From: Bacteroidales bacterium
GTDB taxonomy: Bacteria; Bacteroidota; Bacteroidia; Bacteroidales; UBA932
Reading direction: 5' to 3'
DNA: 64,000 nucleotides
Assembly: GCA_017471965.1 (NCBI GenBank)
Contig: JAFURF010000005.1
Location: 1-64,000, forward strand
Below the pieces are notes generated by a model that saw nothing but the letters and a program-made list of their open reading frames with translations, was not told the origin of the DNA and did no database searches. Numbering within the stretch: the stretch's first letter is position 1; every line of letters begins with the position of its first letter. The position numbers and the translations under genes are program-made. Below, piece after piece: positions 43,059-61,528 of this stretch.

Positions 43059-45641
43059 TCAGATTTTAACGATTGTCTTTTTGTATTCGCCTCCACCGAA
43101 TGACACCCTCATAGTGTAGATTCCCGGAGCAAATGCGCTTATGTCGATTTTTGCCGGCTCGAACGCGCTGGCCTTGACGTTGTCTTCATATACTGTCTTT
43201 CCGGTCTGGCTCACTATTGTCACCTTGGTGTCAGCCATGTCCAAGGTACCGACATAGACAAAATCTGTAGCAGGATTCGGATAGACTGAAAGCGGATCGG
43301 AAGGATCTTTCACCATAAGTCTGAATGTTACTGTTACGGATTCTCCGCGTGCATCGCTTGCCTTGACAGTGACATCTGTGCTTCCGTATGCTATGGCAGT
43401 TATGATCAGCGAATTTCCCTTGACATTGCAGTGTGCCGTCTTTTCGTCAGACATTGTCACCTCATATTTCAACTGCTCACCATCCGGATCACTGAAATAC
43501 TTCGACAAGTCCATAGTCATTTCCTGTCCTTTTGCCTTCATGAAGATATCTTCTGGGTCAGAGACTTTGACCGGTGCCATGTTCTCACGGATAGTGTATT
43601 CTATTTCAGCGGAAGCACTGAGACCGTATTCGTCCGTTGCCTTAATCGTGGATGTATATGTTCCCATATCGACAGCGTTTCCTTTGATGGTGAGACGCCA
43701 CTTGCCGTCTGGAGTAGATGTCAGAGTCTCAGCAGGAGAACCTGATATGAGTTCCACAGTCATCTTATGGCCGTCTGGTTCTGTGACTTCTATGATGATA
43801 TTAATTGTCTCTGAAGGCATCAGTGTAAGGTCTTCTTCAGCGGTGAACTCAATCACAGGAGGATTGTTCCCGGTTGTGTTCAAAGTCACGATGTCCGTGT
43901 ATCCGGAGTAATTTCTGCCATAAGAATATGCCGCCATCTTGATATGATATGTGGTCTCGAATTCCAGGAACGGTATGCTGAACTCTACCTTGTCTCCTGC
44001 TTTTGCATTTGGAGTGACAGTCATGTATCTGACTTCGTTAAGTTCCTTTTCTGTTGCCGCTTCGATCTTCGACCTGTCAGGATCATACATGATCATGAAT
44101 CCGTATGCTGCCTTTCCGTCTTCGTCGGCCGGAACCGTCCATGCAAGGTCAAGATTATTGCCTCGCCCTGTACCTTCGAGGTCGACGACTGCCTCCGGTG
44201 CCTTGTCGTTGCCGTATGCGAACGCGCCATAGGCATCAACAAGACCACCGATCTGATAGGCCTGCGAGATTACAGATTTGTTTGCACTGCCGATAAGTTT
44301 CTCCTTGAGCATCTCATTGGTGAAGCCTGGGCCTCCGAAATGCGATACTATCAGAGCTGCTACACCGGATACATGCGGACAGGCCATCGATGTGCCGCTC
44401 ATCATGCCATAAGAGTTATCCGGCAGGGTGCTGATTATATCCGTTCCAGGAGCGCAGATATCCACCCAGTCTCCGTAATTCGAGAAAGAGGAACGGGTGC
44501 CGTTGGAAGCGATCGAGCCCACTGCTATGACAGATTCGTATGCGGCTGGAGCGGCGTTGGTGATGGTTTCGTTACCTGCTGCGAAGATCACGACACCTCC
44601 CTTCATCGGTGAGTCTGGAAGTTGGTTTCCTAGATTGTCACAACCTGCCCTTCTGATGAAATAATCTATTGCATCTTTGTCTGGGCCAGATATCGTTGCA
44701 TCCATGGCTCTTTCCAATTCGTCTCCGGTAAGTTTGCCGTCACCGTCTGCATCGTATGTATATCCCCAACTGTTCTGCGAAATGACTGCACCATGATCGG
44801 CTCCCCATTTGATGGCCTGAGCGCTGCTGCCCTGGGTGTCAGCCCCATCCTTGAATATCTGGCAACGGAGTATCTTCACGCCGCTTTTGCCTTTCGCATA
44901 GTCTCCGCCTGCAACTCCAACTACACCCTTCCCGTTGTTGCCGACTGCTGCTATGGTTCCAGCCACATGAGTGCCGTGACTGCCTGCCTTGATTACGCTG
45001 TTGTTGTCTACGAAGTTTCTGTGGCCTGAGGCAAGGACGTTTGCGCTGAGGTCCTCATGTGTCAGGTCAACTCCGCTGTCAACGACGCTTACGATCACTT
45101 CAGGATTACCTGCTGTGTAATTGTTCCATACGGGGCGTACATTTATATCAACTCCGGTCTTCTCGCGGTTATATAGTCCCCAAAGATCAGAAGTCAGGTC
45201 ATTGAAGTCATTGTTCCTTATTTTCCGTGCAGGCTCGAATTTTTCGATGCCGGGTACTGTTTCAAGACTTGACCGGGCCTTGGTGACGGGCATGTCAGGA
45301 GAATATTCCACAACATACCACCTGTGAAGGCCGTCCTCTCTGGTTCTTGGTTCAAATTCTCCGGCATGGGGAAAGAGTCGGTACATCCTGGAGATGCCGA
45401 GGTCCTCCAGAACATTGTTCAGCGGTTCCGACTTGGTCGCATGAGAGCCTGAATCAACGGCATCCTCTACTATTGCAGTCAGATCATTGCTGAGGTAAAC
45501 ATATGCCTCACCAGAGACAAAGACATCGGAGACCTCCGCGGAACTGCCTTTATCCGCTTCGGGCACCGATTGTACGAGTTCGTCCTGTACGCATGAAATG
45601 AATGTTACCGCCATAATGAAGGCAGCAAGACAATGCTTCAT
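43059..45641 (-). CDS. Subtilisin-family (S8) protease with type IX secretion C-terminal domain
   Basis: Secreted serine endopeptidase, 860 aa. A lipoprotein-like signal (MAVTFISC) and propeptide-like region (about 20-160) precede the catalytic domain, with D188 (VVDSGVD), H222 (GSHGTHVAGT), an oxyanion Asn in FAAGNET, and S418 (GTSMACPHVSG). A fibronectin-like domain (about 480-590) and two cadherin-like domains (NPPVIEFTAEEDLTL, MAPVKVSDPEDIF) follow, then a type A sorting domain at about 785-860 (LSVYPNPATDFVYVG, GIYTMRVSFGGGEYKKTIV). It follows the susCD and lipoprotein genes across a 72-bp gap that holds a terminator hairpin. The peptides it releases would feed the neighbouring SusCD pair. 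Confidence 0.93.
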   Translation of the reverse strand: MKHCLAAFIMAVTFISCVQDELVQSVPEADKGSSAEVSDVFVSGEAYVYLSNDLTAIVEDAVDSGSHATKSEPLNNVLEDLGISRMYRLFPHAGEFEPRTREDGLHRWYVVEYSPDMPVTKARSSLETVPGIEKFEPARKIRNNDFNDLTSDLWGLYNREKTGVDINVRPVWNNYTAGNPEVIVSVVDSGVDLTHEDLSANVLASGHRNFVDNNSVIKAGSHGTHVAGTIAAVGNNGKGVVGVAGGDYAKGKSGVKILRCQIFKDGADTQGSSAQAIKWGADHGAVISQNSWGYTYDADGDGKLTGDELERAMDATISGPDKDAIDYFIRRAGCDNLGNQLPDSPMKGGVVIFAAGNETITNAAPAAYESVIAVGSIASNGTRSSFSNYGDWVDICAPGTDIISTLPDNSYGMMSGTSMACPHVSGVAALIVSHFGGPGFTNEMLKEKLIGSANKSVISQAYQIGGLVDAYGAFAYGNDKAPEAVVDLEGTGRGNNLDLAWTVPADEDGKAAYGFMIMYDPDRSKIEAATEKELNEVRYMTVTPNAKAGDKVEFSIPFLEFETTYHIKMAAYSYGRNYSGYTDIVTLNTTGNNPPVIEFTAEEDLTLMPSETINIIIEVTEPDGHKMTVELISGSPAETLTSTPDGKWRLTIKGNAVDMGTYTSTIKATDEYGLSASAEIEYTIRENMAPVKVSDPEDIFMKAKGQEMTMDLSKYFSDPDGEQLKYEVTMSDEKTAHCNVKGNSLIITAIAYGSTDVTVKASDARGESVTVTFRLMVKDPSDPLSVYPNPATDFVYVGTLDMADTKVTIVSQTGKTVYEDNVKASAFEPAKIDISAFAPGIYTMRVSFGGGEYKKTIVKI

Positions 45642-46614: not shown

Positions 46615-48150
46615 TTACTCAGAGACATAGCCGTCATTCTGCACAAGAGACGGTGTGATCTGAATTTCATATGTAGGGATAGGCCAGTTGAACACATGAC
46701 TGCCGGCGGCAAGAGTTCTTTCTGTAAAGCCGACACCTTGCATTACAAGATTCTCGGCTCCGTCCTGCTCAACTCTTGCTTCAAGTCCGTCTCCCCAACG
46801 CTTGATGCAAGATAGACGAAGTCCCTCACCTACGGTTTCTCTGAACCATTCCTTCTTCACGCTGGCTAGGCTGCCATCCGTAAGATTAGCCTTACGTGCT
46901 TTTTGAAGTTCGTTGAGGATGGCTTTTGCCTTGGCCTCGTCTGTGTGACTGTAAGCCTCTGCTACAATGAGATACATTTCTCCTAGCATGATTGGCTTCG
47001 CTGAATGAGCACCGTTCTCTACCTCGCCGTCATAGAGGTTCGGATTCCCTCTATACTTCTGGAATACATATATTCCGCCATAGAATGAACCTTCTACCCT
47101 GAGCGGATATGGAGGGACAGCCTCTGTAGTATAAGTGTCGTCCGTAAGACAGAACCATGATGCAAGACGAAGGTCATCATTACCATATGCAGATACCAAT
47201 GCCTTGGTAGGCAAGTAATAAGGAGAGAAGTATTTCGTGTCTTCGTTCTTGCTTACAAGGGTATAATAGGTGTTCCCCTTCAGTCCCTCAGTTTTTGATG
47301 CATAAAGTTGGATTACAGGTTCTGTTCCAAGTTCGTTAGTGTACTCTGCGAGCATTTTTTCCGCAGTGTTGGCAAGACCGTAGCCTGCCTCTGAGTCAAT
47401 GACATTCAATGCATATTCCGCAGCATTGTCATAGTCCTGTACATCCAGATAGTAGCGGGCCTTGAGAGCATATACGGCATCTACGGTCGGGATTTGTGAC
47501 CTGACTTTCCCTGGAATATCCGCAAGCAGTCCTTCGGCTTCTTCAAGGTCGAGAAGAATCTGGTCATACACATCCTTTACTGTTGCACGTTCCGGTTTCT
47601 CCAACTGGTCGTATACCAGAATGAGAGGGACACACAGGTCAGTGTCTGCTGTGGCCGGGTTGTATGCTGGACCCCAGTGTCTTGCAAGGTGAAGGTAAGA
47701 AGATGCCCTGCAGAATAGAGCAATACCCTTTAGTATAGAAGCGCTTTCCTTAAGTTCTTCAGTTACATTGTCTGCACCTTCGATTGCTATGTTGTAGTTC
47801 TTGATAACAGAGTAGTGGTTTGCCCATACGGCCTCTACTTCCTGATTGCTAGGAGTAAAGGTGTCGTCTGTCTTATGAATTATACCATAATTGTTACCGT
47901 ATCCGAGAACAGCATTGAAACCGTCGCACATAAGTTCGCTCGTGTACGAATATGTTCCGTATTGTACTGAACGATATGAAGCAAGTACACCGCTCTGGAA
48001 TGATGCGACATCGTTCTCGCTGATCAGAAGAGGCTCGTTTTCATCATAGACGATCGCTGTGGTTGGAACGAGATTCATGTCGCAAGACAGGAGTATAACT
48101 GCTGTCATTCCGCCCACGAAGATATTTCTGATTATATTTTTCATATTCAT
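46615..48150 (-). CDS. SusD/RagB-family lipoprotein of the left peptidase operon
   Basis: 511-aa lipoprotein (VILLSCDMN) with the SusD fold (GIALFCRASSYLHLARHWGPAYN, TVDAVYALKARYYLDVQDYDNAAEYA, IMLGEMYLIVAEAYSHTDEAKAKAILNELQKAR). The C-terminal VFNWPIPTYEIQITPSL is the usual SusD ending. It lies 23 bp after its SusC. The substrate is probably peptides, judging from the protease in the operon, as with RagB in Porphyromonas. Two in-frame ATGs 6 bp apart could start it. Confidence 0.93.
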   Translation of the reverse strand: MNMKNIIRNIFVGGMTAVILLSCDMNLVPTTAIVYDENEPLLISENDVASFQSGVLASYRSVQYGTYSYTSELMCDGFNAVLGYGNNYGIIHKTDDTFTPSNQEVEAVWANHYSVIKNYNIAIEGADNVTEELKESASILKGIALFCRASSYLHLARHWGPAYNPATADTDLCVPLILVYDQLEKPERATVKDVYDQILLDLEEAEGLLADIPGKVRSQIPTVDAVYALKARYYLDVQDYDNAAEYALNVIDSEAGYGLANTAEKMLAEYTNELGTEPVIQLYASKTEGLKGNTYYTLVSKNEDTKYFSPYYLPTKALVSAYGNDDLRLASWFCLTDDTYTTEAVPPYPLRVEGSFYGGIYVFQKYRGNPNLYDGEVENGAHSAKPIMLGEMYLIVAEAYSHTDEAKAKAILNELQKARKANLTDGSLASVKKEWFRETVGEGLRLSCIKRWGDGLEARVEQDGAENLVMQGVGFTERTLAAGSHVFNWPIPTYEIQITPSLVQNDGYVSE

Positions 48151-48173
48151 AGTCTTTATTTTCTGTTCCGTTT

Positions 48174-51167
48174 TTAGAATGTGAGTTCAAGACCGAATAG
48201 GAACTGCTTTGAAGCACCGACACGGCCAAAAGTCAAGTTTCCGTATACCTCTGGATCAACACCGGAGAATGGTGTGACTGTCATGAGGTTACGTCCGGTA
48301 AATGATACTTTGAGACCGTTGACAACCTTCTGATTGCCGAGGAATTTTCTAGGAAGGTCATATGCGACCATAAGATTCTTCAGACGAAGGAAGTTGGCGT
48401 TCTCATAAAGATGGGTGTCGAACTGCATCGTCTGACCCTTAGACCAGTCCGGGAACTTTGCATCTGTGTTTTCTGGAGTCCAGTAGTCCTGTACCATCTT
48501 GTGGGTGTTGTAGCCGAGATTTGATGCAGGGTTGGCATAGAAGATCATGTCGTTATTGAGGAGAGTCTTTCCGACGACATATGAAAAGTCTGCCTGGAAT
48601 GAGAGTCCTCTCCAGCCTGCGCCGATTCCGAAGCCGCCGTTGATAGGAGCGTTGAGTCTCTTTCCTATGTTCTGGGTGAGCGTGGTCTCGTCAAAGGTTT
48701 TTGTCACCCTTTCCGGGTCCATTGTGGTGACATCCTTGTTCTCACCAGGAAGGTACCACATCTGGCGTCCGTCCTCAGGATCGATACCAGCAAATATAGG
48801 AGCATAGAAAGACACTGGTTCGCCTACTACATATGCAAGACCTGTATTGGCAATCTCCCATCTTTCCATCCCGTTGAAGAGTTCGGTTACCTTTTCCTGA
48901 TTCCATCCGAAGATAACGTTTGCACGCAGATAGTAGTCCCTGCCTCTGAGGATGTCAACACCGAGAGTGACGTCTATACCAGTGTTGCTCATGCTTCCTA
49001 CATTGGCATATAGGCTGCTGAATCCTGTGGTATAGTTGTATGGAACATCCATGAGCATTGAGGTCGTAGTCCTGTTGTAGAACTCAACATTTACATCAAG
49101 TCTGTTGAAGAGACGTCCGTTGATGCCCACGGTCAGGAGAGCCTGCTGCTCCCATGTAAGGCCTGGGTTTGAAGGCTGACCCAATCCTGTAGAGTTCTGG
49201 TCTGCATACTTGGTCATAGTTCCTACGAGTCCATAATGCTGATAATCACCAATTTCAGCATTGCCCTGAGTTCCGTAACTGACCTTGAAGTTGAGATCAT
49301 CCACCCAGTCTGCATTGAGCATAAAGTTCTCTCTCTTGATCTTCCACATTCCTCCGACAGCCCAGAATGTAGCATTTCTGTTATCTCTACCGAAACGTGA
49401 AGATGAGTCATTACGGATGGATGCATCAAAGTAGTATTTGTCCATCAGTGCGTAGTCCACTCGGCCGAAGAATGACAGGAACTTGCTCTGTGACAGACTT
49501 TCGCTCACATCGTAGTAGTCCTGAGTTCCATTCTGAAGATTCATGAGACGATCATCGGTGTGTCCCTCTGAATATGCAGAGAATCCATCATAATAGTTGC
49601 TGATACCCTCCTGACCTGCAAGTACGATGAATTGGTGGTTTTGTCCGATATCGAATGAATACTCTATGGTATTCGTTATGGTTGCAGTATACTGCATTGA
49701 GGTCGACCTTGACCTGTATCCGCTTCCTGCGAACATGGTAGATGAGGGATATCCCAGAGCAACGCCGTAGCCGATATTTCCATCGAGACCAGCACGTGAT
49801 GCTATCTTGAGATTCCTTATCGGTTCTATCTCGACATTGAAGGCTCCCATCAGTCCATAGCGGTTAGATACGCCGTTTGTACTTGCCACATAATAGTCCT
49901 GGTTTAGTATCTGGTTCGGGAACTGTACTTCATAGACTTCACCAGTCTCTGGATTGATGGCAGGATGAAGCGGGCTAAGCATATATGATACACCGCCTGA
50001 CAGATATGGGTCATCAGTAAGGCTTGAACCTCCCCAGTTTCCGTTCGAAGAACGTTTATCATACGAAAGGTTGATGTTCGCTCCTACCTTGAGCCAATCC
50101 ATCGGACGTCCCTGGACATTTGAGCGGAATGTGTAGCGATCATAGTAGTTGCCATATGTTGTTCCTCTCTGATGGAACTGTGAAGCACCAATCATGTATG
50201 CAACTTTGTTGCCACCGCCTTCAATGGTAACATCATTCTGATACTGAGGGTTATTGAACTGCATCAGATATTCGTACCATTTTGTGTCTGCATCATATCC
50301 TTTTGAGGTATAATTTGCATAAATTTGTGCTGGGGTCATCAGACCGGATTCTACCCAGAAGTCCTTAAGTTCAGGACCGGACATCATGTTGTCATAGAGA
50401 GTCATGTCTGCAAGAGTGGAGATACCTGCCTGGCTTCTGATGGTCACTGATGCCTTGGCGTCGTAGGAACCGGATTTTGTGGTTACATATACGACTCCGT
50501 TTGCTGCGCGGGAACCGTAAATTGATGTGGCAGATGCATCCTTAAGTACCGAGATGCTGAGGATGTCATTTGGGTTCATCGCCATGATTGCACGACTTGT
50601 TGTCTGAATACCGTCGATAATGTAAAGAGGTGAAGTGCTTGATCCGAGCGAACCCATTCCGTGAAGAGTCATAGACACGTTGTTTTCTCCGGATACACCA
50701 CCTGTTGTCAAAACTGCAAGGCCGGCCACCTGACCTTGTAGAGCATCAAGGGCTGAAGATGACGGAGCATTTTTAATGCCTTCAGACTTTACGGTAGTTA
50801 CTGAACCGACCATTGTGCCGACTTTCTTGGCTGAACCATATCCGACAACAACGGCATCCTCAAGGATCTCCTTGTCTGCAGGAAGTTCGCAATTGACCTG
50901 AGCCCTTCCTCCTACTTCCACTTCCACTGTCTCATATCCGATAGACGAGAATACGAGAACAGCGTTCTTGGACACTGTGATCGAGTAATGTCCGTTAACG
51001 TCAGTGTTGACTCCGTTCATCGTACCCTTCTCATGAACAGATGCGAAAGGTACCGGATCGCCGTTTGTGGCGTCAGTCACATTTCCAGTGACTGTCAGAC
51101 TCTGGGCAAAGGCCAAGGTGCTGATCATCACTGCTAACGCTGTGAGAAACAGTTTGATTTTTCTCAT
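48174..51167 (-). CDS. SusC/RagA-type TonB-dependent receptor of the left peptidase operon
   Basis: 997-aa outer-membrane transporter with signal peptide (ALAVMISTLAFAQ), carboxypeptidase-regulatory-like domain (about 25-100), plug (VVVGYGSAKKVGTMVGSV, PLYIIDGIQ, VLKDASATSIYGSRAANGVVYVTT) and barrel ending GLELTF. Its start codon lies 7 bp from the left inverted repeat of the invertible segment. In the orientation given, no -7 box faces it inside that segment, so it is predicted to be off until inversion. It is only moderately similar to the right-hand SusC, so the two are not recent duplicates. Confidence 0.95.
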   Translation of the reverse strand: MRKIKLFLTALAVMISTLAFAQSLTVTGNVTDATNGDPVPFASVHEKGTMNGVNTDVNGHYSITVSKNAVLVFSSIGYETVEVEVGGRAQVNCELPADKEILEDAVVVGYGSAKKVGTMVGSVTTVKSEGIKNAPSSSALDALQGQVAGLAVLTTGGVSGENNVSMTLHGMGSLGSSTSPLYIIDGIQTTSRAIMAMNPNDILSISVLKDASATSIYGSRAANGVVYVTTKSGSYDAKASVTIRSQAGISTLADMTLYDNMMSGPELKDFWVESGLMTPAQIYANYTSKGYDADTKWYEYLMQFNNPQYQNDVTIEGGGNKVAYMIGASQFHQRGTTYGNYYDRYTFRSNVQGRPMDWLKVGANINLSYDKRSSNGNWGGSSLTDDPYLSGGVSYMLSPLHPAINPETGEVYEVQFPNQILNQDYYVASTNGVSNRYGLMGAFNVEIEPIRNLKIASRAGLDGNIGYGVALGYPSSTMFAGSGYRSRSTSMQYTATITNTIEYSFDIGQNHQFIVLAGQEGISNYYDGFSAYSEGHTDDRLMNLQNGTQDYYDVSESLSQSKFLSFFGRVDYALMDKYYFDASIRNDSSSRFGRDNRNATFWAVGGMWKIKRENFMLNADWVDDLNFKVSYGTQGNAEIGDYQHYGLVGTMTKYADQNSTGLGQPSNPGLTWEQQALLTVGINGRLFNRLDVNVEFYNRTTTSMLMDVPYNYTTGFSSLYANVGSMSNTGIDVTLGVDILRGRDYYLRANVIFGWNQEKVTELFNGMERWEIANTGLAYVVGEPVSFYAPIFAGIDPEDGRQMWYLPGENKDVTTMDPERVTKTFDETTLTQNIGKRLNAPINGGFGIGAGWRGLSFQADFSYVVGKTLLNNDMIFYANPASNLGYNTHKMVQDYWTPENTDAKFPDWSKGQTMQFDTHLYENANFLRLKNLMVAYDLPRKFLGNQKVVNGLKVSFTGRNLMTVTPFSGVDPEVYGNLTFGRVGASKQFLFGLELTF

Positions 51168-51174
51168 AGTAGTT

Positions 51175-51259
51175 ACTTTTAGTTGTTAAACATAAATATT
51201 GAATTATTATTCTTCGTACAGCATACACTACACTTACTGCACTTATAAACGGGCGTTTT
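51175..51259 (+). repeat. Left inverted repeat of the invertible segment
   Basis: Begins ACTTTTAGTTGTTAAACATA and ends AAACGGGCGTTTT. It matches the complement of 52230-52313 apart from one base of length, a scrambled hexamer near 51208-51214 and substitutions at 51224 and 51244. It makes up nearly all of the 5' leader of the left susC. Residues 51216-51242 form an imperfect dyad (GTACAGCA ... TACTGCAC, 27 bp overall), a candidate recombination site. Confidence 0.95.
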
Positions 51260-51324
51260 ATCTGGCAGAAACTAACAGGCCGTTTCTGGTAAAAAAGATT
51301 ACTAACGAATTAAATATTAAGACA

Positions 51325-51921
51325 ATGTCCGCATTTGCTTACATCAGGGTCAGTACGGAGATGCAGACCCATTCAAATCAGAAATACGAAATCTCCAACT
51401 GGTGCAGACAGCGAGGAATCAGTGTCATGGCATGGGTGTCAGAGTCTGTGTCAGGAACCGTTGCCGTCGAAAAAAGAAGTCTGGGAAGTCTGCTGGACCG
51501 CATGGAAAGGGGTGATCTTCTCATATGTACGGAACTGTCTCGCCTCGGGCGCAACATGCTGATGATCATGGGGATACTGAATACATGTGCAGAAAAAGGG
51601 ATATCGATCCACTCCATCAAGGATAACTTTGATCTCTCGGACAACATCAACTCTAAAATAATCGCCTTTGCCTTTGCGCTTGCAGCGGAAATCGAAAGGA
51701 CCCTTATTTCTCAAAGGACAAAGGAGGCCCTCGCTGTACGTCGGCTTATGGGAGTCCGCCTCGGCCGCCCTCCGGGAACATCTTATAAAAGGGAATATTT
51801 TGAAAAGAACAGGAAAGCCATAGAGTCGCTGCTTGCTGACGGCGATTCATTGTCTTCAGTTGCAAGAAGATACGGCATGCACAGGAATACGCTGAGAAGA
51901 TATCTTGATGACGGGCGGTGA
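51325..51921 (+). CDS. Serine site-specific recombinase (DNA invertase family)
   Basis: 198-aa resolvase/invertase. ATG 51325 puts the catalytic serine at residue 10 (AYIRVSTEMQ), as in Hin and gamma-delta; the open frame from 51199 runs through the inverted repeat and was not used. Other catalytic-domain marks are LICTELSRLGRNMLMIMGI and IIAFAFALAAEIERTLISQRTKEAL; a helix-turn-helix closes it (SLSSVARRYGMHRNTLRRYL). Its size and layout match the Bacteroides master invertase type (Mpi) rather than large serine integrases. Lying inside an inverted-repeat-bounded segment, it most likely inverts that segment. No TAnnTTTG box was seen before it, so it may be weakly expressed. Confidence 0.93.
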   Translation: MSAFAYIRVSTEMQTHSNQKYEISNWCRQRGISVMAWVSESVSGTVAVEKRSLGSLLDRMERGDLLICTELSRLGRNMLMIMGILNTCAEKGISIHSIKDNFDLSDNINSKIIAFAFALAAEIERTLISQRTKEALAVRRLMGVRLGRPPGTSYKREYFEKNRKAIESLLADGDSLSSVARRYGMHRNTLRRYLDDGR

Positions 51922-52179
51922 CAATTCATAAGTTACAGAATCATTAATAATGATATGAAACGGTTGACATTGCACTGAACAAAGTGTCTATATTACAGCA
52001 TATAAGGCAACTGTAATGCATTAAAAAAGCAGATATGTAACTTTTTTGAAAATTTATTTTTGTTTGGCACTGGTGCAAAAAAACTAAAGAACTGCAAAAT
52101 CTTCCATAAAATCGCTTACGAATTGTAACTAAAATTCAAACTTGTTGCTCAAAGAGTCAATCAGCGTGTTTTCAAAAGG

Positions 52180-52211
52180 TTAGGATTTTTAAAAATATCT
52201 TTTTATTTTTG
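52180..52211 (+). promoter_or_regulatory. Outward-facing promoter inside the invertible segment
   Basis: TATTTTTG at 52204-52211 fits the -7 consensus TAnnTTTG; TTAG at 52180-52183, 20 nt earlier, is an imperfect -33. The box ends 18 bp inside the right inverted repeat and about 110 bp before the right susC ATG. In this orientation it serves the right operon; after inversion it would sit at the same distance from the left one. Confidence 0.65.
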
Positions 52212-52229
52212 CAATTCGGGCTGTTTGTA

Positions 52230-52313
52230 AAAACGCCCGTTTATCAGTGCAGTAAGTGTAGTGTGTGCTGTACGAATAAGATAATTCAATATTTATGTTT
52301 AACAACTAAAAGT
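52230..52313 (-). repeat. Right inverted repeat of the invertible segment
   Basis: Near-exact inverted copy of 51175-51259, reading AAAACGCCCGTTTAT at its inner end and AACAACTAAAAGT at its outer end, 7 bp before the right susC ATG. The candidate dyad recombination site is 52247-52273 (GTGCAGTA ... TGCTGTAC). Confidence 0.95.
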
Positions 52314-52320
52314 TCAACCC

Positions 52321-55299
52321 ATGAAAAGAATCAGACTTTTTTTCACGGTTATGGTTATGCTGCTGGCTTCGGCTTCGGCCTTCGCTCAGAACATGACCGT
52401 ATCAGGTGTTGTGACCGATTCCAATGACGTGCCGCTTATCGGCGCCACAGTGATGGTGGAAGGCACTCAGACAGGAACATCGACAGATGTGGACGGAGCC
52501 TTCAAGATCACTGCTCCGAAGAACGGAACCCTCGTCGTTTCAGTCATCGGATACGCAACAAAGAACATTCCTGTCAACGGACAGTCTTTCATCACTGTTC
52601 AACTTGAAGAGGATGCGGAATTCCTTGATGCAACCATCGTCATCGGCTATGGTTCAGGCCAGAAGATCGGCAACATCGTAGGTTCGGTCGCTACCGTGTC
52701 TTCAGACGAGATCGCTTCGCGTCCGTCCGGAAACATCAGTGACGCCCTTCAGGGTAAGGTTGCAGGTCTCCAGATCTTCAACTCTTCAGGAGAGCCACAG
52801 AGTTCGGTAAGCATCAAGCTCCGCGGTACTTCATCCCTTAACCTCAGCAATGCTCCTCTTTACATTCTGGACGGAGTGCCTGTAAGTTCATCGGTATTCT
52901 CTACCCTGAACCCTCAGGATATCGAGAACATCTCCATCCTCAAGGATGCATCGTCGACAGCCATCTACGGTTCCCGTGCGGCAAACGGTGTCATCTACAT
53001 TTCTACAAAGAAAGGAAAGAAGGGTGAAAAGGCGACAGTTTCAGTACGCGCCCAGTATGGTGTGTCGACTCTGACAAAGTATAACTTCGACATGATGAAC
53101 GCAGAGGAACTCATCCGTTTCGAGGAAATCTGTGACCCTGTCACTACTAGTACACCTGAGTATCAGGCAAGAAAGGCTTTCATTCTCGGAAACAACATCG
53201 ACTTCGACTGGCTCGACTATCTTTATGACAGCGCGGCACCGGTAATGCAGGCTGACGCTTCATTGAGAGGTGCTACAGAGACCACAAACTACTATGTGTC
53301 ACTCGGATACTACTCTGAGGAAGGTACATACAAGTACAATTCAGGTATGGACCGTTTCAATATCCGTGCGAACCTGGATACTCAGATCTCCAAGTGGCTC
53401 AAGTTCGGTCTCAACCTTTCGCTTTCATACAAGAAGTATTCTACCATCACTACCGGTTGGTACTCTCAGTCTCCTATCCTCGTCGCTGTGACGGAACTTC
53501 CGTACAGGACTCCATATGAAATCATCCACAATCCTGACGGAACGATTTCTTTCGGCGACGTGAAGCAGACTTATGACTGGAACGGTACAATGGACCTCCA
53601 TGAGTATTACAAGAATACTTATAACAACAAGGATGATTTTGCAATAATGGGGCAGACGTATTTCCTTCTGACTCCTATGAAGGGTCTTACCATCCGCGCT
53701 GCGCAGGCAATAGATGCTTACGATTACACAAGCCAGAGTGTTGCCAATCCTTCCTTTACTCCTTATACATATAGAGGACGTACAACCCGTTATTTTGAGA
53801 GATATTACCAGTTGTCATCAACCAACACTATTGAGTATAAGACAGATATCAATCAGGATCACTTCTTCACCGCCCTTCTGGGACATGAGTCTCTATACAA
53901 GAACTCGAGATTCTTCAGTGCAACAGGTACCGGTCTTACAGATGACCGCCTTGTAGAGTTTGCTGCCACTACAGACATCGAGTCTTGGGATGGTTACACT
54001 CAGGAATCTGCCTTCAACTCTTTCTTCGCAAACTTCAACTACAGTTACCGCGACAGATATTTCGTGGATGCTTCCGTACGTACTGACGGTTCGTCACTTT
54101 TCGGAAAAAATCACAGATATGCCACATTCTATTCTGTAGGAGGTATGTGGAAGGCAAAGAACGAGGCCTTCCTTCAGGATGCCCATTGGCTCAATGATCT
54201 TAGTCTGAGCGTAAGTTACGGTACTACAGGTAACTCAGGCCTCAGCAGCTGGTATGCTTCACAGGGTCTCGTAGGTACAGGTCCTAAGTACAACGGAAAT
54301 GCAGGTTGGGCACTTGCTCAGGTTCCTAACGCAGACCTTACGTGGGAGACTGTGGCGACCCTTAACGTCGGTCTCCGTGCAAGATTCTTCGACAGGTTCG
54401 GAGTAGGTGTGGAATTCTATGACAAGTCTTCTTCAGACCTTCTTATGGAGATTCCATACTCAGGAACCACAGGTCACTCAGGCGGCTGGGGCAACATCGC
54501 TGCGATGACCAACAGGGGTGTTGACCTCGAAGTGGATGTAGACCTTATCCACACCAGAAACATCTACTGGGGTGTAAGGGCGAATGTGAACTACAACAAG
54601 AACGAGATCACCAAACTCTATCAGGGTCTTGACGAACTCGCATTCCCTGATGCAGGTCTCAAATATCAGGTCGGCAAGTCTTCTACTCTTGTATATACAC
54701 AGATTTTCGGAGGCGTGGATCCTCTGGACGGTAGCCCTATGTGGTACGACCTCAACGGAAACCTTACAAAGACATTCTCAAATGAGATCATGCAGTTCTG
54801 GGGTGACGACAAGGATGCCACTGCAGCATGGTCCGGCGGATTCTCGACCAACTTCTCTTGGAAGGGTCTCGGCATCAACGCCGACTTCTCATGGGTAGGT
54901 GACCGTTGGATCTGGATGAACGAGTACTACTATACAAGAAACCCTCAGAACCAGTTGTTCAACAGCAACTTCGAGAGAAAGATGATTGACATCTGGCAGA
55001 AGCCGGGTGACGTGACGGATATTCCTAAGTATGGTACTACATTCCAGTTCGATACATCGGTCTACTCAAACGCATCATTCCTCAGACTTAAGAACCTCTC
55101 GATTTCATATTCATTCCCTAAGGCTCTCCTCGAGAAGACAAAAGCTCTCACCGGACTCAAGGTATATGCTACAGCGCGTAACCTTTGGACAGTGACAGGC
55201 TTTGAGGGATATGATCCTGAGGTAGGTTACTCTAACGGTACTGCAGGACTTTATCCTAACTCCCGCCAGATCGTATTCGGTGCAGAAATCACTTTCTAA
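52321..55299 (+). CDS. SusC/RagA-type TonB-dependent receptor of the right peptidase operon
   Basis: 992-aa outer-membrane transporter: signal peptide (LLASASAFAQ), carboxypeptidase-regulatory-like domain (GATVMVEGTQTGTSTDVDG), plug (IVIGYGSGQKIGNIVGSV, PLYILDGVPVSS, ILKDASSTAIYGSRAANGVIY) and barrel ending GAEITF. The invertible-segment promoter faces it in this assembly, so it is predicted to be on. Partner SusD starts 19 bp after it. The peptide substrate is inferred from the M64 peptidase downstream. Confidence 0.95.
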   Translation: MKRIRLFFTVMVMLLASASAFAQNMTVSGVVTDSNDVPLIGATVMVEGTQTGTSTDVDGAFKITAPKNGTLVVSVIGYATKNIPVNGQSFITVQLEEDAEFLDATIVIGYGSGQKIGNIVGSVATVSSDEIASRPSGNISDALQGKVAGLQIFNSSGEPQSSVSIKLRGTSSLNLSNAPLYILDGVPVSSSVFSTLNPQDIENISILKDASSTAIYGSRAANGVIYISTKKGKKGEKATVSVRAQYGVSTLTKYNFDMMNAEELIRFEEICDPVTTSTPEYQARKAFILGNNIDFDWLDYLYDSAAPVMQADASLRGATETTNYYVSLGYYSEEGTYKYNSGMDRFNIRANLDTQISKWLKFGLNLSLSYKKYSTITTGWYSQSPILVAVTELPYRTPYEIIHNPDGTISFGDVKQTYDWNGTMDLHEYYKNTYNNKDDFAIMGQTYFLLTPMKGLTIRAAQAIDAYDYTSQSVANPSFTPYTYRGRTTRYFERYYQLSSTNTIEYKTDINQDHFFTALLGHESLYKNSRFFSATGTGLTDDRLVEFAATTDIESWDGYTQESAFNSFFANFNYSYRDRYFVDASVRTDGSSLFGKNHRYATFYSVGGMWKAKNEAFLQDAHWLNDLSLSVSYGTTGNSGLSSWYASQGLVGTGPKYNGNAGWALAQVPNADLTWETVATLNVGLRARFFDRFGVGVEFYDKSSSDLLMEIPYSGTTGHSGGWGNIAAMTNRGVDLEVDVDLIHTRNIYWGVRANVNYNKNEITKLYQGLDELAFPDAGLKYQVGKSSTLVYTQIFGGVDPLDGSPMWYDLNGNLTKTFSNEIMQFWGDDKDATAAWSGGFSTNFSWKGLGINADFSWVGDRWIWMNEYYYTRNPQNQLFNSNFERKMIDIWQKPGDVTDIPKYGTTFQFDTSVYSNASFLRLKNLSISYSFPKALLEKTKALTGLKVYATARNLWTVTGFEGYDPEVGYSNGTAGLYPNSRQIVFGAEITF

Positions 55300-55318
55300 C
55301 ATCTAAAAAGAATTGACA

Positions 55319-56827
55319 ATGAAAAAGATAAGAACAATACTCTTTACATGTGCCGCTGTCTTGATGACTGGGGCATGTAATCTGGAGAAGTTCCCGACAA
55401 CTGCGATCAACACCGAGGAGGCTATGGAGAGCGTTTCTGACTGTCAGGCTTTCCGCAACGGTCTCTATTCGGGAATGAAGTACGCGTTCTCAGGAGCATT
55501 CGTATATTATCAGGATCTTCAGACCGATCTTTTCCATGCAGTGAAGAACTTCGGTAACTGGGGCGGTCCTTTCTACAGTTATCAGTTGCAGCCGTCTGAG
55601 TCTATGTGCTCTACAACATGGTTCGGACTTTACGGATATATCGGAAATGCCAACTTCCTCATTGACGGTACAAAGAAACTTCTTGCTTCTGAAACTCTGA
55701 ATGAGGCAGATACGAAACTCGTTCAGCAGTATTATGGTGAGGCATGCTATATCCGTGCCCATATGTATTTCAACCTCACTCAGTATTTCTGCGAGGACTA
55801 TGATCCGGACACGGCATCTGAGGTTCTCGGTGTTCCTGTAGTGACCAAGTATGAGCCTACAGGTGATGCTTCAAAGTATCCATCAAGAGGTACCCTGGAC
55901 CTTGTCTATGAGCAGATTGTCGAGGACCTCGCTGAGGCAGAGACTTATGTTACAGAACCGGGAAGCGTCAATGCCAAATATGTGACCAAGGATGTGGTTA
56001 CGGCTCTTCAGGCACGCGTGGCTCTTACAATGCACGACTACGACACAGCACTCCTCAAGGCGAAGTCACTCATTGACGGTGGCAAGTATGCTCTTGTAAG
56101 CGATGCTGCCGCATTCGCTGCAGGATGGCTCAACGACAACCTTTCAGAGACACTTTGGCAGGTTGAGATGACAGGACCGGACGATACAGGTAACGCATAT
56201 TCTTATTTCATCTACAACACTACAGGTGAGGAAGGAATGGATGACCCTCAGTATGTTCCTGAGGATTGGGTTCTTGATCTTTATGACCAGACCAATGACA
56301 TCCGTTTCGCAAGTTGGTTCGACGAGCGTGAACTCAGCGTAAGAAACACAGGCCGTCTCACTCTCCTTGTAAAGTATCCTGGTAATCCTATGCTTTATTC
56401 TTCAGTTACCAACTATGTAAACAAGCCGAAAGTTTTCCGCATCTCCGAGATGTATCTCATCGCAGCCGAGGCGGCCATCGCTAAGGGAAATCAGGACGCC
56501 GTAGCAAGCAAGTACATCAACGACCTCAGGGCAAAACGTATTGCAGGCTGGAAGAATACTGATTACACAGGTGATGCACTCGTGGTGGAACTCCGTCAGG
56601 AAAGGGTTCGTGAACTTTATGGCGAGGGCTTCCGTCTCAATGACCTGAAGCGTTGGCATATGGGCTTCACCCGTACGGCAGGTCAGGATCCTGCAATGGT
56701 TCAGCCAGGTGAGGGATATGCAAAATGCACCCGCCCTGCAGATGATCCATACTTCCTGTGGCCTATCCCTGAGGATGAGATCCAGGCTAACCCTCAGATG
56801 GAGCAGAATTCTGCTTACAAGCGTTAA
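55319..56827 (+). CDS. SusD/RagB-family lipoprotein of the right peptidase operon
   Basis: 502-aa lipoprotein from ATG 55319 (a TTG two codons earlier is ignored), signal AAVLMTGAC. SusD features: QYYGEACYIRAHMYFNLTQYF, KDVVTALQARVALTMHDYDTALLKA, RISEMYLIAAEAAIAKGN, RQERVRELYGEGFRLNDLKRW and the terminal YFLWPIPEDEIQANPQMEQN. It is co-transcribed with the preceding SusC and is the binding lid of that pair. Confidence 0.94.
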   Translation: MKKIRTILFTCAAVLMTGACNLEKFPTTAINTEEAMESVSDCQAFRNGLYSGMKYAFSGAFVYYQDLQTDLFHAVKNFGNWGGPFYSYQLQPSESMCSTTWFGLYGYIGNANFLIDGTKKLLASETLNEADTKLVQQYYGEACYIRAHMYFNLTQYFCEDYDPDTASEVLGVPVVTKYEPTGDASKYPSRGTLDLVYEQIVEDLAEAETYVTEPGSVNAKYVTKDVVTALQARVALTMHDYDTALLKAKSLIDGGKYALVSDAAAFAAGWLNDNLSETLWQVEMTGPDDTGNAYSYFIYNTTGEEGMDDPQYVPEDWVLDLYDQTNDIRFASWFDERELSVRNTGRLTLLVKYPGNPMLYSSVTNYVNKPKVFRISEMYLIAAEAAIAKGNQDAVASKYINDLRAKRIAGWKNTDYTGDALVVELRQERVRELYGEGFRLNDLKRWHMGFTRTAGQDPAMVQPGEGYAKCTRPADDPYFLWPIPEDEIQANPQMEQNSAYKR

Positions 56828-56853
56828 TCAGTAAACATTAAAGTGAATTCAAA

Positions 56854-57801
56854 ATGAAAAGTTTCAAATATTTGGCAATGATCGCTTTCGCTGCTGGAGT
56901 TCTTGTTTCCTGTGATGAGACAAAGACTCCGGACGGAGCAGGAGATGCGACTATAGGCTTTGCACAGGAAGTCTACACTTTCAAGGAGTCTGCCGGTCTC
57001 CTGCGAATTCCTGTGGCGTTTACAGGAGAGCCTAAGCAGTATCCGATCACTTTCGATGTCGTTGCAGAAGTGGACGGCACCGAGTTCGAGGTTGAAGACC
57101 TTCTTCACTTCACTCAGACAGAAGGCCTTAAGTATGCAGGAAATGAAGATGCTCCTGCCTATATCGAGTTCCAGGTCTATGACAATCAGGAGATAAACGA
57201 TTCCAGGTTTGTCAACCTTACGATTACAAATGTCAAAGGTGCTGTGCTTGCAGGTACAGGCAAAACTTCAATCGAGATTGCTGACAATGACAACAATCCG
57301 TATGAAAGACTTTGGGGTAACTGGGTACTTTCAGGAACCAGTCCGTTTACCGGTGCGACTGCTAGTACAGAAGTGAACATAAGTGGCGGATTCTCAGCAG
57401 ATGAAGAGGCTGTCAACTTTGAAAAGACTTTGGTATGCTGGGGAATGGCCGGCACGCAGTCAGAGGTCAAGGGCGACCCTGTGAAGCAGCCTGTGTGGTA
57501 TTTGGCTTATAATGCAGAGGAAAAGACTCTTACCCTCCAGTCAGGTAAACTCATGGCAAATGCGTTCTCTTTCGGTATCGGAAATAACGAAGAGGTATAT
57601 GCAGCGGCTCTTTATGTAAACGAAGAGGGCAAATTGGTATATAGCATGGATTATAACGGAGTGACTGCGACGTGGAGTGACGATATGAATACCATCACAT
57701 TCGCAAATAATACCGGTATTTATGCAGCAATTTATGCAGATGGTGAAGATACCGGATATGGATGGGATGGATATCTCAATGTCACAATGACCAGAAAGTA
57801 G
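56854..57801 (+). CDS. Lipoprotein with Calx-beta-like domain (SusE-position protein)
   Basis: 315-aa lipoprotein (AAGVLVSCDE). Residues about 30-150 (IGFAQEVYTFKESAGLLRIPVAFTG, YDNQEINDSRFVNLTITNVKGAVL, TSIEIADNDNNPYERLWGNW) resemble a Calx-beta domain; the C-terminal half is an unassigned beta domain. It is the counterpart of the 293-aa lipoprotein at 45714: same place after susD, same two-part plan. It starts 26 bp after susD. Probable surface accessory binding protein. Confidence 0.8.
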   Translation: MKSFKYLAMIAFAAGVLVSCDETKTPDGAGDATIGFAQEVYTFKESAGLLRIPVAFTGEPKQYPITFDVVAEVDGTEFEVEDLLHFTQTEGLKYAGNEDAPAYIEFQVYDNQEINDSRFVNLTITNVKGAVLAGTGKTSIEIADNDNNPYERLWGNWVLSGTSPFTGATASTEVNISGGFSADEEAVNFEKTLVCWGMAGTQSEVKGDPVKQPVWYLAYNAEEKTLTLQSGKLMANAFSFGIGNNEEVYAAALYVNEEGKLVYSMDYNGVTATWSDDMNTITFANNTGIYAAIYADGEDTGYGWDGYLNVTMTRK

Positions 57802-57824
57802 ATTTAAACTAAATTGAATTGATT

Positions 57825-59522
57825 ATGAAGACATTAAAATATTTTGCTGCGTTTCTCGCTGCTGTCCTTGTACTTGGTGCATGCGACAAGGGAGACGGCC
57901 TGAGCCAGCAGAACAAAGATAAGGAGAAGCCTTATGTGACTCTTAGTCAGAAGGTCGCGGATGATGTCACCTTGACGTTCGAAATCACTGCTTCTGAAGA
58001 TGCCAAGCATTATGCTTATGCTGTCTTCGCAGGGTCTGACAATGCGGTTCCTGCTGCATATGATATCCTTGTAGGAGAAACATCGGGAGCAGATGACGGT
58101 GCATTCACTGTAGGTGAAGATAAGAAGTATACCCAGACTGTCACTGTGGACTGTTCTGCCTTCCCTTCTGAAACCTATCAGATCTTTGCGGCAGCGATGA
58201 CCGAGACCGGACTTCTGAGTGAAGTCCTGACTCTTGATGTGACCATGAACGACACACTGATACCTGAGCCTGCAGGTGCGGATATTGATGGCAACACCAT
58301 CACTCTTGCTTTCGATGAACTCATTGCACGTGGCAAAGGCAAGGCTTATGTGTCTGTGATAGCATGGGGAGTAGGAAAAGTTTATATCAACAATCAGGTG
58401 ATTGCTGAGGAGAACATCACGATCGAGGCCAATACCGTGACCATCGTTTGCCCTGAGGCAGGAAACGGAGCAGGCTATATCCTGAGTTTCGAAGAAGGAC
58501 TTGTGACTGACCTTTCCGGAAATCCATGCGAGGCATGCAAGTCCGGTCTTGATGAGAACAGTGAATATGTAGGACTCGGATGGGACACCGAGTGGGTTAA
58601 CTTCAACATTACTGAAGACTCTTTCGAGACTCCTGCAGAAGATACGGATTGGGCTGCGGAAGATGCAAGTCTGACTTTCAAATTCCCTGTACAGGTAATG
58701 GATGCCAAGGCTGTCAACCCTATCAAGGTCATCTACAAGGAGGCAGAAGGAATATACCAGCTCAATGCAGAGTATGTCTTGGCAGAGGATGCTCAGACTG
58801 TAACTGTTTATCTTCCTAAGATGCCTACCGGTGAGTTCGATGTTTCTGTTGATGCCAATGCATTCTATGACATGTGGGGAAACACGAACAATGCATTTTC
58901 TCCTGAAGGATACAGATATTCTAACTTCCTTATAGAACTTGTTGCCGGCAACTACCTTGTAGAGTATCTCTATCCGGATGCAGAAGGCAACCCTGTTCTT
59001 GATGAGTTCCCTCTTGAACTTGAGATGGTAGACAAGACTACTGTTGTCGTTTATGCTGACTGGTTCAACTATATGTATAACCAGTATGGCATGAGCGGCT
59101 ATGCTGCGGCCCCATATCTGATCGGTACAGTCAATTATGCGAAGCAGACCATAGTATTTGACGGAAGATATCTTGATAGTAAAGGTAACCTCTCACAGTA
59201 TAATGCTTTCGGTGGCGGATTTTACTACTACGATGCCGATCAGACCATGATGACCGTATTCTGGGGTGGCGGAGCAGACGGAAGTGATCCGGTTGTAGTG
59301 ACATTCAATGAAGATGGTTATCTTGACTCGATGTCATACTGTGATTACAGTGTATATAAAGTTTCCGGTGGGTATCTCGCACTGTATGGATGTACCGCTG
59401 TTACAGAAACCGCTAATGCCGCAATGACATATGTTCCTGCTGAAGATGATACAGTGTCGGCAAATGCTCCGGCAAAGAATCTTGTTGAACCTGTATATGT
59501 TCACGGCAACTTCAGGAAATAG
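57825..59522 (+). CDS. Uncharacterised lipoprotein with Ig/fibronectin-like domains
   Basis: 565-aa lipoprotein from ATG 57825 (signal AVLVLGAC). An N-terminal fibronectin-like region (VTLTFEITASEDAKHYAYAVFAG), a domain like bacterial Ig-like 'Big_5' at about 145-240 (DIDGNTITLAFDELIARGKGKAYV, FEEGLVTDLSGNPCEACKSGL), another such repeat, and a C-terminal region (NYLVEYLYPDAEGNPVLDEF, GGGFYYYDADQTMMTVFWGG). The left-operon lipoprotein at 40602 has a similar overall plan. No enzymatic motif; probably surface binding. Confidence 0.8.
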   Translation: MKTLKYFAAFLAAVLVLGACDKGDGLSQQNKDKEKPYVTLSQKVADDVTLTFEITASEDAKHYAYAVFAGSDNAVPAAYDILVGETSGADDGAFTVGEDKKYTQTVTVDCSAFPSETYQIFAAAMTETGLLSEVLTLDVTMNDTLIPEPAGADIDGNTITLAFDELIARGKGKAYVSVIAWGVGKVYINNQVIAEENITIEANTVTIVCPEAGNGAGYILSFEEGLVTDLSGNPCEACKSGLDENSEYVGLGWDTEWVNFNITEDSFETPAEDTDWAAEDASLTFKFPVQVMDAKAVNPIKVIYKEAEGIYQLNAEYVLAEDAQTVTVYLPKMPTGEFDVSVDANAFYDMWGNTNNAFSPEGYRYSNFLIELVAGNYLVEYLYPDAEGNPVLDEFPLELEMVDKTTVVVYADWFNYMYNQYGMSGYAAAPYLIGTVNYAKQTIVFDGRYLDSKGNLSQYNAFGGGFYYYDADQTMMTVFWGGGADGSDPVVVTFNEDGYLDSMSYCDYSVYKVSGGYLALYGCTAVTETANAAMTYVPAEDDTVSANAPAKNLVEPVYVHGNFRK

Positions 59523-59544
59523 CCATCATATGCTTCAGATGAAA

Positions 59545-59572
59545 CCTTCCGGCTCCCAAACGGGCCGGGAGG
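59545..59572 (+). terminator. Hairpin between binding-protein genes and the M64 peptidase gene
   Basis: Nine-pair stem CCTTCCGGC (59545-59553) with GCCGGGAGG (59564-59572), one G-T pair, 10-nt loop, followed by a weak CTTTG run. It probably attenuates rather than fully ends transcription into the peptidase gene; no TAnnTTTG box was seen before that gene. Confidence 0.5.
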
Positions 59573-59616
59573 CTTTGTCGTTTAATCAATAATGTTAAAA
59601 CCAACAATTTGTCGTA

Positions 59617-61509: not shown

Positions 61510-61528
61510 GCAAATTTCGCTAACTTTA
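61499..61528 (+). promoter_or_regulatory. Possible promoter for the YhhN-family gene
   Basis: TTG at 61499-61501, 19 nt, then TAACTTTA at 61521-61528, one base off the -7 consensus. It overlaps the end of the M64 gene and lies 24 bp before the ATG at 61553, so that gene could be transcribed apart from the invertible operon. Confidence 0.5.

What the first reader, a model, noticed from the sequence alone, without database searches (positions are those of the whole stretch)
51175..52313. Hin-like reciprocal switch: one invertible promoter between two divergent SusCD-peptidase operons
Seen: two susC genes point away from each other, and between them lies a 1.1-kb segment with ~85-bp near-perfect inverted repeats, a serine recombinase gene and a single outward -7 box (52204-52211) next to the right repeat. 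No TAnnTTTG box faces left next to the left repeat. Known: serine invertases (Hin, Mpi) flip such segments, and invertible promoters before susC-like genes are established in Bacteroidales. Inferred: flipping turns the right operon off and the left one on, so cells express one or the other. A self-contained switch choosing between two peptidase uptake systems is the best candidate for an undescribed system here.
Basis: partly seen in the sequence, partly recalled or inferred. Interest (0 to 1): 0.95.

Follow-up and report, generated by a model that had tools for sequence, protein, structure and literature searches.

The report
Either-or DNA switch for protein uptake
An uncultured gut bacterium carries a 1-kb DNA cassette, with the gene of a predicted DNA-flipping enzyme and one predicted promoter, between two opposite-facing operons likely used to digest and import protein fragments; flipping it would likely switch the cell from one operon to the other, and in related species matching operons lie on the opposite side of the enzyme gene.

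Summary
Two divergent susC genes (51167, 52321) flank a cassette with 84-bp inverted arms (79 matches), a 198-aa Mpi-like serine invertase (51325-51921) and one outward -7 box (52204-52211). Each arm ends inside in a palindromic core, AAACG-GG-CGTTT, in opposite orientation, so about 984 bp should invert. Invertases of this clade were found in 65 of 400 genus genomes examined (one locus each); 37 of 54 testable loci have divergent susC on both sides within 700 bp. The core's central dinucleotide differs between loci but agrees between both cores of a locus in 41 of 43 (permuted mean 10.9). A bipartite promoter faces out at the invertase-distal core in 34 of 43 loci (not the window, whose -33 has a mismatch) and at the proximal core in 0 of 43. 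The two nearest relatives carry the window's left (SusC 71%) and right (73%) operons on the opposite side of the invertase, homology ending at the cores. Partner operons differ between species; some relatives have extra sites. Flipping within a strain and exclusive expression are inferred. Verdict: an either/or inversion switch with exchangeable cargo, a new variant of Bacteroidales phase variation.

The parts
51325..51921 (+). Mpi-like serine invertase, 198 aa, R8/S10 and R73/R76 present
   Evidence: Pfam Resolvase 5.4e-33; NF009949 Mpi family 252 bits, cut-off 272; solved DNA-invertase 4m6f E 8.8e-15; residues read
51247..51258 (+). left crossover core AAACG-GG-CGTTT (predicted)
   Evidence: homology to L224 stops at 51259
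52231..52242 (-). right crossover core, opposite orientation (predicted)
   Evidence: homology to L226 starts at 52229
51253..52236 (.). segment predicted to invert, about 984 bp
   Evidence: inferred from the two core centres
52204..52211 (+). outward -7 box TATTTTTG of the single promoter (predicted)
   Evidence: the same end carries a bipartite promoter in 34 of 43 loci
52180..52183 (+). degenerate -33 element TTAG (TTTG expected)
51168..51246 (-). left susC leader (outer part of left arm) with TCAATATTTATGTTTAA
52243..52320 (+). right susC leader (outer part of right arm) with TCAATATTTATGTTTAA
48174..51167 (-). left SusC/RagA, 997 aa
   Evidence: TIGR04056 668 bits
46615..48150 (-). left SusD-like
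   Evidence: PF14322, PF07980
45714..46595 (-). lipoprotein-like gene, weak Calx-beta match
   Evidence: 25.4 bits, below cut-off 27
43059..45641 (-). S8 subtilase with Por_Secre_tail sorting domain
   Evidence: PF00082 2.3e-46, PF18962 8.2e-12
52321..55299 (+). right SusC/RagA, 992 aa; 38% identical to the left one
   Evidence: TIGR04056 768 bits
55313..56827 (+). right SusD-like
   Evidence: PF07980 2.1e-26
56854..57801 (+). right operon gene, no Pfam match; 58% identical homologue in L226
57819..59522 (+). right operon gene, no Pfam match; 57% identical homologue in L226
59617..61509 (+). M64 peptidase with BACON domains; 75% identical homologue in L226
   Evidence: PF09471 3.4e-10

Best explanation
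The cassette at 51247-52242 is most likely a self-contained either/or DNA-inversion switch: its own Mpi-like serine invertase is predicted to flip about 984 bp between two inverted AAACG-GG-CGTTT cores, so that the single outward promoter would serve either the right SusCD/M64-peptidase operon (the assembled state) or the left SusCD/S8-subtilase operon. Shown: the parts; their conservation in the genus; the locus-specific match of the crossover dinucleotides; the one-sided promoter; and orthologues of both window operons on the opposite side of the invertase in the two nearest relatives, with homology ending at the cores. Inferred: strand exchange at the central dinucleotide, inversion in this strain, expression of one operon at a time. 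The operons behave as interchangeable cargo: across species the same operon is seen on either side and with unrelated partners.
For: Inverted arms, cores, invertase and promoter. Divergent SusC on both sides within 700 bp in 37 of 54 testable loci, on the promoter side in 51 of 54. Central dinucleotide concordant in 41 of 43 loci though GG, AG, GT, TC, GA and TT occur; permutation mean 10.9, maximum 21 of 10,000 (dinucleotide not scored). Bipartite promoter at the invertase-distal core 34 of 43, at the proximal core 0 of 43; shuffle means 3.9 and 1.6. Switch invertases are one branch, SH-aLRT 99. Window left operon against L224 and right operon against L226: operon and invertase have opposite relative direction, with match ends at 51259 and 52229. 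SusC orthologues of 90% or more: 10 pairs on opposite sides, 5 on the same side. Core fits the Mpi repeat ARACGTTCGTN with another dinucleotide (PMC8375218, passage).
Against: No reads, no second strain, no expression data. The orientation evidence is between species (SusC 71-73%), and the other partner differs, so cargo relocation rather than inversion could place an operon on the other side. Of 54 loci, 15 have SusC on one side only within 700 bp and 2 on neither. 22 of 65 loci gave no significant core pair. 9 of 43 loci, the window among them, lack the bipartite promoter pattern, which was set after viewing the loci; the plain TAnnTTTG is at the distal end in only 12 of 43 (shuffle mean 3.2, maximum 9). 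Both leaders carry TATTTATG, one base off a -7 box, so the disconnected operon might keep some transcription. Same-side pairs also lose homology at the core in 2 of 3 cases, so the drop alone does not prove inversion.
Confidence: 0.85

Rival explanations
1. The segment flips, but the disconnected operon keeps its own promoter in the leader, so the switch biases expression instead of choosing one operon.
For: Both leaders hold TATTTATG, one base off TAnnTTTG, inside TCAATATTTATGTTTAA, which recurs (up to 3 mismatches) in 24 of 43 left and 28 of 43 right leaders and in the own genome, with up to 1 mismatch, only at the two switch leaders and two places not followed by a susC.
Against: No TTTG -33 at the usual distance from it (only TGTG or TATG); the motif is missing from many leaders; it may equally be a 5' UTR element.
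Confidence: 0.2
2. Cargo exchange, not promoter flipping, is the main process: the cores and leaders serve as recombination points at which operons are swapped between species or loci, and inversion is rare.
For: Of 20 SusC pairs at 85% or more, the 9 whose partners could be compared have partners only 25-41% identical; no two loci share both SusCs at 75% or more; homology stops at the core in same-side pairs too; some relatives have a third core next to another susC.
Against: The promoter is kept at one end only and the two cores of a locus keep matching dinucleotides, as expected if recombination between the two cores is selected; left SusCs are full length (950 aa or more) in 36 of 37 two-sided loci although no promoter faces them.
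Confidence: 0.12
3. No inversion: two paralogous susC genes with similar leaders happen to flank a recombinase gene, and the arms are shared ancestry.
For: Arm similarity continues into the signal-peptide codons.
Against: The two SusCs of a locus are mostly distant (median 34% over 44 loci, window 38%, one pair at 86%); matched dinucleotides, the one-sided promoter and opposite placement of orthologues are unexplained.
Confidence: 0.03

Closest known systems
Mpi master serine invertase and its invertible capsule promoters, Bacteroides fragilis
   Same: Related small serine recombinase (NF009949, 252 bits); core AAACG-NN-CGTTT fits the published repeat ARACGTTCGTN (PMC8375218, passage); a promoter is inverted.
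   Different: Mpi acts on 13 regions (PMC4747536, passage), capsule promoters among them, mostly away from its gene; here the gene sits inside the segment and the promoter would serve an operon in both orientations. Score is below the family cut-off.
B. fragilis SusC/SusD intergenic shufflon (region EE) and Tsr0667 shufflons
   Same: DNA inversion decides which SusCD pair is expressed; larger inversions bring alternative ragA/susC genes behind an invertible promoter (PMC5729914, PMC4747536, passages).
   Different: Recombinase type: Tsr are tyrosine recombinases (Tsr0667 recalled), here serine; there many genes behind one promoter, here in the window two divergent operons and two cores. Three-core relatives (L203, L205) come closer.
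Hin switch of Salmonella flagellin (recalled; listing only, PMC9368917)
   Same: About 1-kb segment holding a serine invertase gene and a promoter; alternative surface proteins.
   Different: Hin works through a repressor of the distant fliC; here both operons touch the segment. No Fis enhancer was sought.
Campylobacter fetus sapA invertible promoter (recalled, not checked)
   Same: One promoter swings between two divergent surface-protein genes.
   Different: Recalled as a larger segment with S-layer cargo and other recombination machinery.

Membership tests
Small serine recombinase (resolvase/invertase) | Resolvase domain with catalytic Ser and Arg residues plus a C-terminal HTH | tested here: met
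   PF00239 residues 3-144, 5.4e-33; HTH matches below cut-off; R8, S10, R73, R76; alignment to 4m6f
Mpi master invertase (NF009949 equivalog) | Score above the curated cut-off of 272 bits | tested here: not met
   252.3 bits; so Mpi-like, not filed as Mpi
Mpi master invertase (NF009949 equivalog) | Site of the type ARACG-TT-CGT | tested here: met
   AAACG-GG-CGTTT: same half-site, different central dinucleotide; across loci mostly GG, AG, GT
Mpi master invertase (NF009949 equivalog) | Acts in trans on many promoters of the genome | tested here: not met
   Only two cores in the held genome with up to 1 mismatch; genome 64% complete
Invertible-promoter phase variation | Inverted recombination sites around an outward promoter | tested here: met
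   -33 imperfect in the window
Invertible-promoter phase variation | Both orientations present in one population | not testable with these tools
   No reads; opposite placement seen only between species
Hin-type flagellar switch | Invertase gene within the invertible segment | tested here: met
   51325-51921 lies between the cores
Hin-type flagellar switch | Fis-bound recombinational enhancer | not tested
   no search made
SusC/SusD shufflon (Tsr0667 type) | Tyrosine recombinase | tested here: not met
   serine recombinase
SusC/SusD shufflon (Tsr0667 type) | More than two sites moving whole susCD genes | tested here: not met
   two cores in the window genome; three or distant cores in some relatives

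The most novel reading that the evidence does not exclude
A genus-wide plug-in switch: in Candidatus Cryptobacteroides one invertase cassette serves as a socket into which SusCD-peptidase operons are exchanged between species at the crossover core, on either side and sometimes as a third cassette, so that each lineage toggles between a different pair of protein-scavenging systems and the same invertase both flips the promoter and recruits new cargo.
Probability: 0.35. Interest if true: 0.88.

Novelty: new variant of a known kind. Interest (0 to 1): 0.75.

Why it matters
The Bacteroidales inversion systems in the papers seen here switch surface operons on or off or shuffle genes behind one promoter. 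This one is compact, carries its own invertase, recurs across a genus of uncultured gut bacteria and would commit a cell to one of two peptide-uptake systems. Different species hold different operon pairs around the same switch, a natural experiment on why SusC proteins (nutrient importers, and recalled as phage and immune targets) are phase-variable. The locus-specific dinucleotides would also be a ready set of insulated serine-invertase sites.

Tried and rejected
Third 12-mer in the own genome (C75:9912): lies between a 797-aa and a 381-aa divergent ORF without the GCAC flank; taken as chance. Phage or plasmid carriage: no viral contig was found to encode a relative; 25 viral contigs hold the exact 20-mer, not followed up; the best 5000 plasmid records and 78 phage records with a match are all under 60% identity. 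Does the leader follow the operon or the locus: mixed, not decisive (arm identity within loci median 71, between loci 60). Clean two-sided inversion between species: at 50% or more only L106/L124, L108/L134 and L061/L112 match crosswise, and L119/L143 and L113/L118 straight, too distant to prove a flip. Contigs ending at the switch: 9 of 64 end within 600 bp of the invertase, about 2.1 expected; fits mixed orientations, but repeats alone could cause it. Invertase promoter: the core-to-start gap is 46 bp at the median, no consensus promoter seen upstream; unresolved. No structure was predicted.

Rows left out: the 13 loci L063-L075 (42-55% identity, SusC beside the invertase in none) did not enter the 68 loci. 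Of those 68, L158, L160 and L161 (49-51%, no SusC found) were left out. In one search, 11 of 65 loci were too short on one side; L121 counts as one-sided only because its left SusC reading frame overlaps the invertase start. 8 of 65 were not in the tree for stops or length. One search scored dinucleotide agreement and is no evidence for it; one search repeats it without that term. Site and promoter patterns were set after viewing the loci.

Full report
What is there. The segment 51168-52320 lies between two divergent SusC genes (48174-51167 minus, 52321-55299 plus), 38% identical to each other. The arms 51176-51259 and 52230-52313 agree at 79 of 84 positions. A 198-aa recombinase is encoded at 51325-51921. 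It matches Pfam Resolvase (5.4e-33), a solved DNA-invertase (4m6f, 8.8e-15) and the NCBIfam Mpi family (252 bits, below the cut-off of 272). Each arm's inner end holds AAACG-GG-CGTTT, in opposite orientation. The -7 box TATTTTTG at 52204-52211 faces right with an imperfect -33 (TTAG, 52180-52183); nothing comparable faces left. The left operon carries an S8 subtilase with a T9SS sorting tail, the right one an M64 peptidase with BACON domains.

The genus. Of 400 genus genomes, 109 have an invertase match at E 1e-50 or better. I compared 67 fetched loci and the window; 65 of these 68, one per genome, belong to the switch clade. In a tree of 57 of them and 25 other invertases the switch rows are one branch (SH-aLRT 99); the window's nearest rows are L105 and L102. 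In the order, 36 of 393 genomes match at E 1e-30 or better, three of them of the same genus; matches outside the genus are 36-53% identical.

Architecture. Of 65 loci, 11 have under 1 kb on a side. Of the other 54, 37 have divergent SusC on both sides within 700 bp, 14 on the promoter side only, 1 on the other side only, 2 on neither. With the dinucleotide left out of the score, 43 of 65 loci have a core pair above the 99% level of shuffles; among the 37 two-sided loci it is 35. The dinucleotide agrees in 41 of 43: GG 15, AG 12, GT 8, TC 3, GA 2, TT 1; permuting partners gives 10.9 on average and at most 21 in 10,000. The pattern TTG-N19..25-TTTG faces out within 75 bp of the invertase-distal core in 34 of 43 and of the proximal core in 0 of 43 (shuffle means 3.9 and 1.6, maxima 11 and 6), ending 19 bp from the core at the median. 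The window is among the nine without it. The plain TAnnTTTG is there in 12 and 0 of 43 (shuffle means 3.2 and 1.3). The patterns were set after viewing the loci.

Orientation in nature. In L224 (G063) the window's left operon matches in the window's direction (47534-51259) while the invertase stretch matches reversed; SusC is 71%, SusD 56%, the lipoprotein 39%, S8 59% identical. In L226 (G416) the right operon matches reversed (52229-58898, 59535-61512; SusC 73%, SusD 72%, M64 75%) while the invertase matches forward. These are the same genomes as L102 and L105, the window's nearest rows. So each window operon sits on the other side of the invertase in a near relative, and the main match ends at the predicted cores (51247-51258, 52231-52242). 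Among SusC pairs of 70% or more, 35 are on the same side and 33 on opposite sides; at 90% or more 5 and 10, at 95% or more 1 and 6; pairs overlap and are not independent. Over 11 pairs, identity in the 60 bp inside the core is 48-58% in 9 (two of them same-side pairs), 67% in one same-side pair and 80% in L060/L133, against 67-93% in the leader. The unit that is shared is thus operon plus leader up to the core.

Cargo. Twenty SusC pairs of 85% or more have invertases 62-92% identical; for the 9 whose partners could be compared these are 25-41% identical. No two loci share both SusCs at 75% or more and two pairs do at 60%. For 47 operons in 26 loci, 80 further genes were scanned: 11 match Peptidase_S8, 3 Peptidase_Mx1, 1 Peptidase_M64, and no glycoside hydrolase family is among the 22 families listed at E 1e-5; operons were cut at locus ends. 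A sulfatase lies inside the segment of L206, which was not in that scan.

More sites. Some relatives have cores kilobases apart or three cores: L203 has a susC pointing outward at each of two cores 13.5 kb apart with another susCD operon and the invertase between them; L201/L202, L204, L205 and L200 are variants. The window genome has two cores only.

Literature. Eight searches of open-licence PMC papers were seen as listings; of six papers I searched passages. They give the B. fragilis region EE ragA/susC shufflon behind an invertible promoter (PMC5729914), Tsr0667 shufflons at three SusC/SusD clusters and Mpi acting on 13 regions (PMC4747536), a review (PMC12632263), inversions near susC/susD in IBD (PMC10939037) and the Mpi repeat ARACGTTCGTN (PMC8375218); PMC11892184 held none of the terms asked. 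In these listings and passages I saw no serine-invertase cassette between two divergent susCD operons. Subscription papers, among them the 2009 Tsr0667 paper, were not available, so this is no proof of absence in print.

Judgement. The parts, their conservation and the opposite placement between species are shown; strand exchange, flipping in the strain and exclusive expression are inferred. Most likely this is an either/or inversion switch for peptide-uptake operons with exchangeable cargo, a new variant of Bacteroidales DNA-inversion phase variation.

Noticed in passing
L203 (cores 2758, 16271); L201/L202; L204; L205 (55, 1341, 16194); L200 (8766, 19898): Relatives with cores kilobases apart or three cores, so whole susCD operons lie between sites: shufflon-like enlargements of the same switch.
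   Followed up: partly
L204 13804-15072; L202 8547-9827; L207 6075-7295; L208 6656-8008; L206 14006-15274; L211 9998-11440: An AAA_14/DUF4143 ATPase gene recurs next to crossover cores or the invertase in six of these loci; role unknown.
   Followed up: partly
window 51186-51202 and 52286-52302: Leader motif TCAATATTTATGTTTAA occurs in the held genome (up to 1 mismatch) at the two switch leaders and two places without a susC; in relatives in 24 and 28 of 43 leaders with up to 3 mismatches.
   Followed up: partly
L133 left core: A sequence like the promoter end of L060 lies inside the left core (80% over 60 bp), so this cassette may carry promoters at both ends.
   Followed up: no
L056 (5876, 5962) and L111: Second core-like palindrome about 48 bp before the invertase start in addition to the outer left core (listed there for L037, L056 and L043).
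   Followed up: no
L215 9421-9501 (G293:C5): Two full palindromic sites with one mismatch to the core, about 550 bp apart, one with a TAnnTTTG 7 bp inside; a possible distant target in a genome that also has a switch.
   Followed up: no
L063-L075, L158, L160, L161: A second set of Mpi-like invertases in the same genus, 42-55% identical, not beside SusC and on other branches of the tree; targets unknown.
   Followed up: no
L211, L212, L213 (G092): Three contigs of one genome each carry a core near one end, next to a susC; the assembly seems to break at the cores.
   Followed up: no
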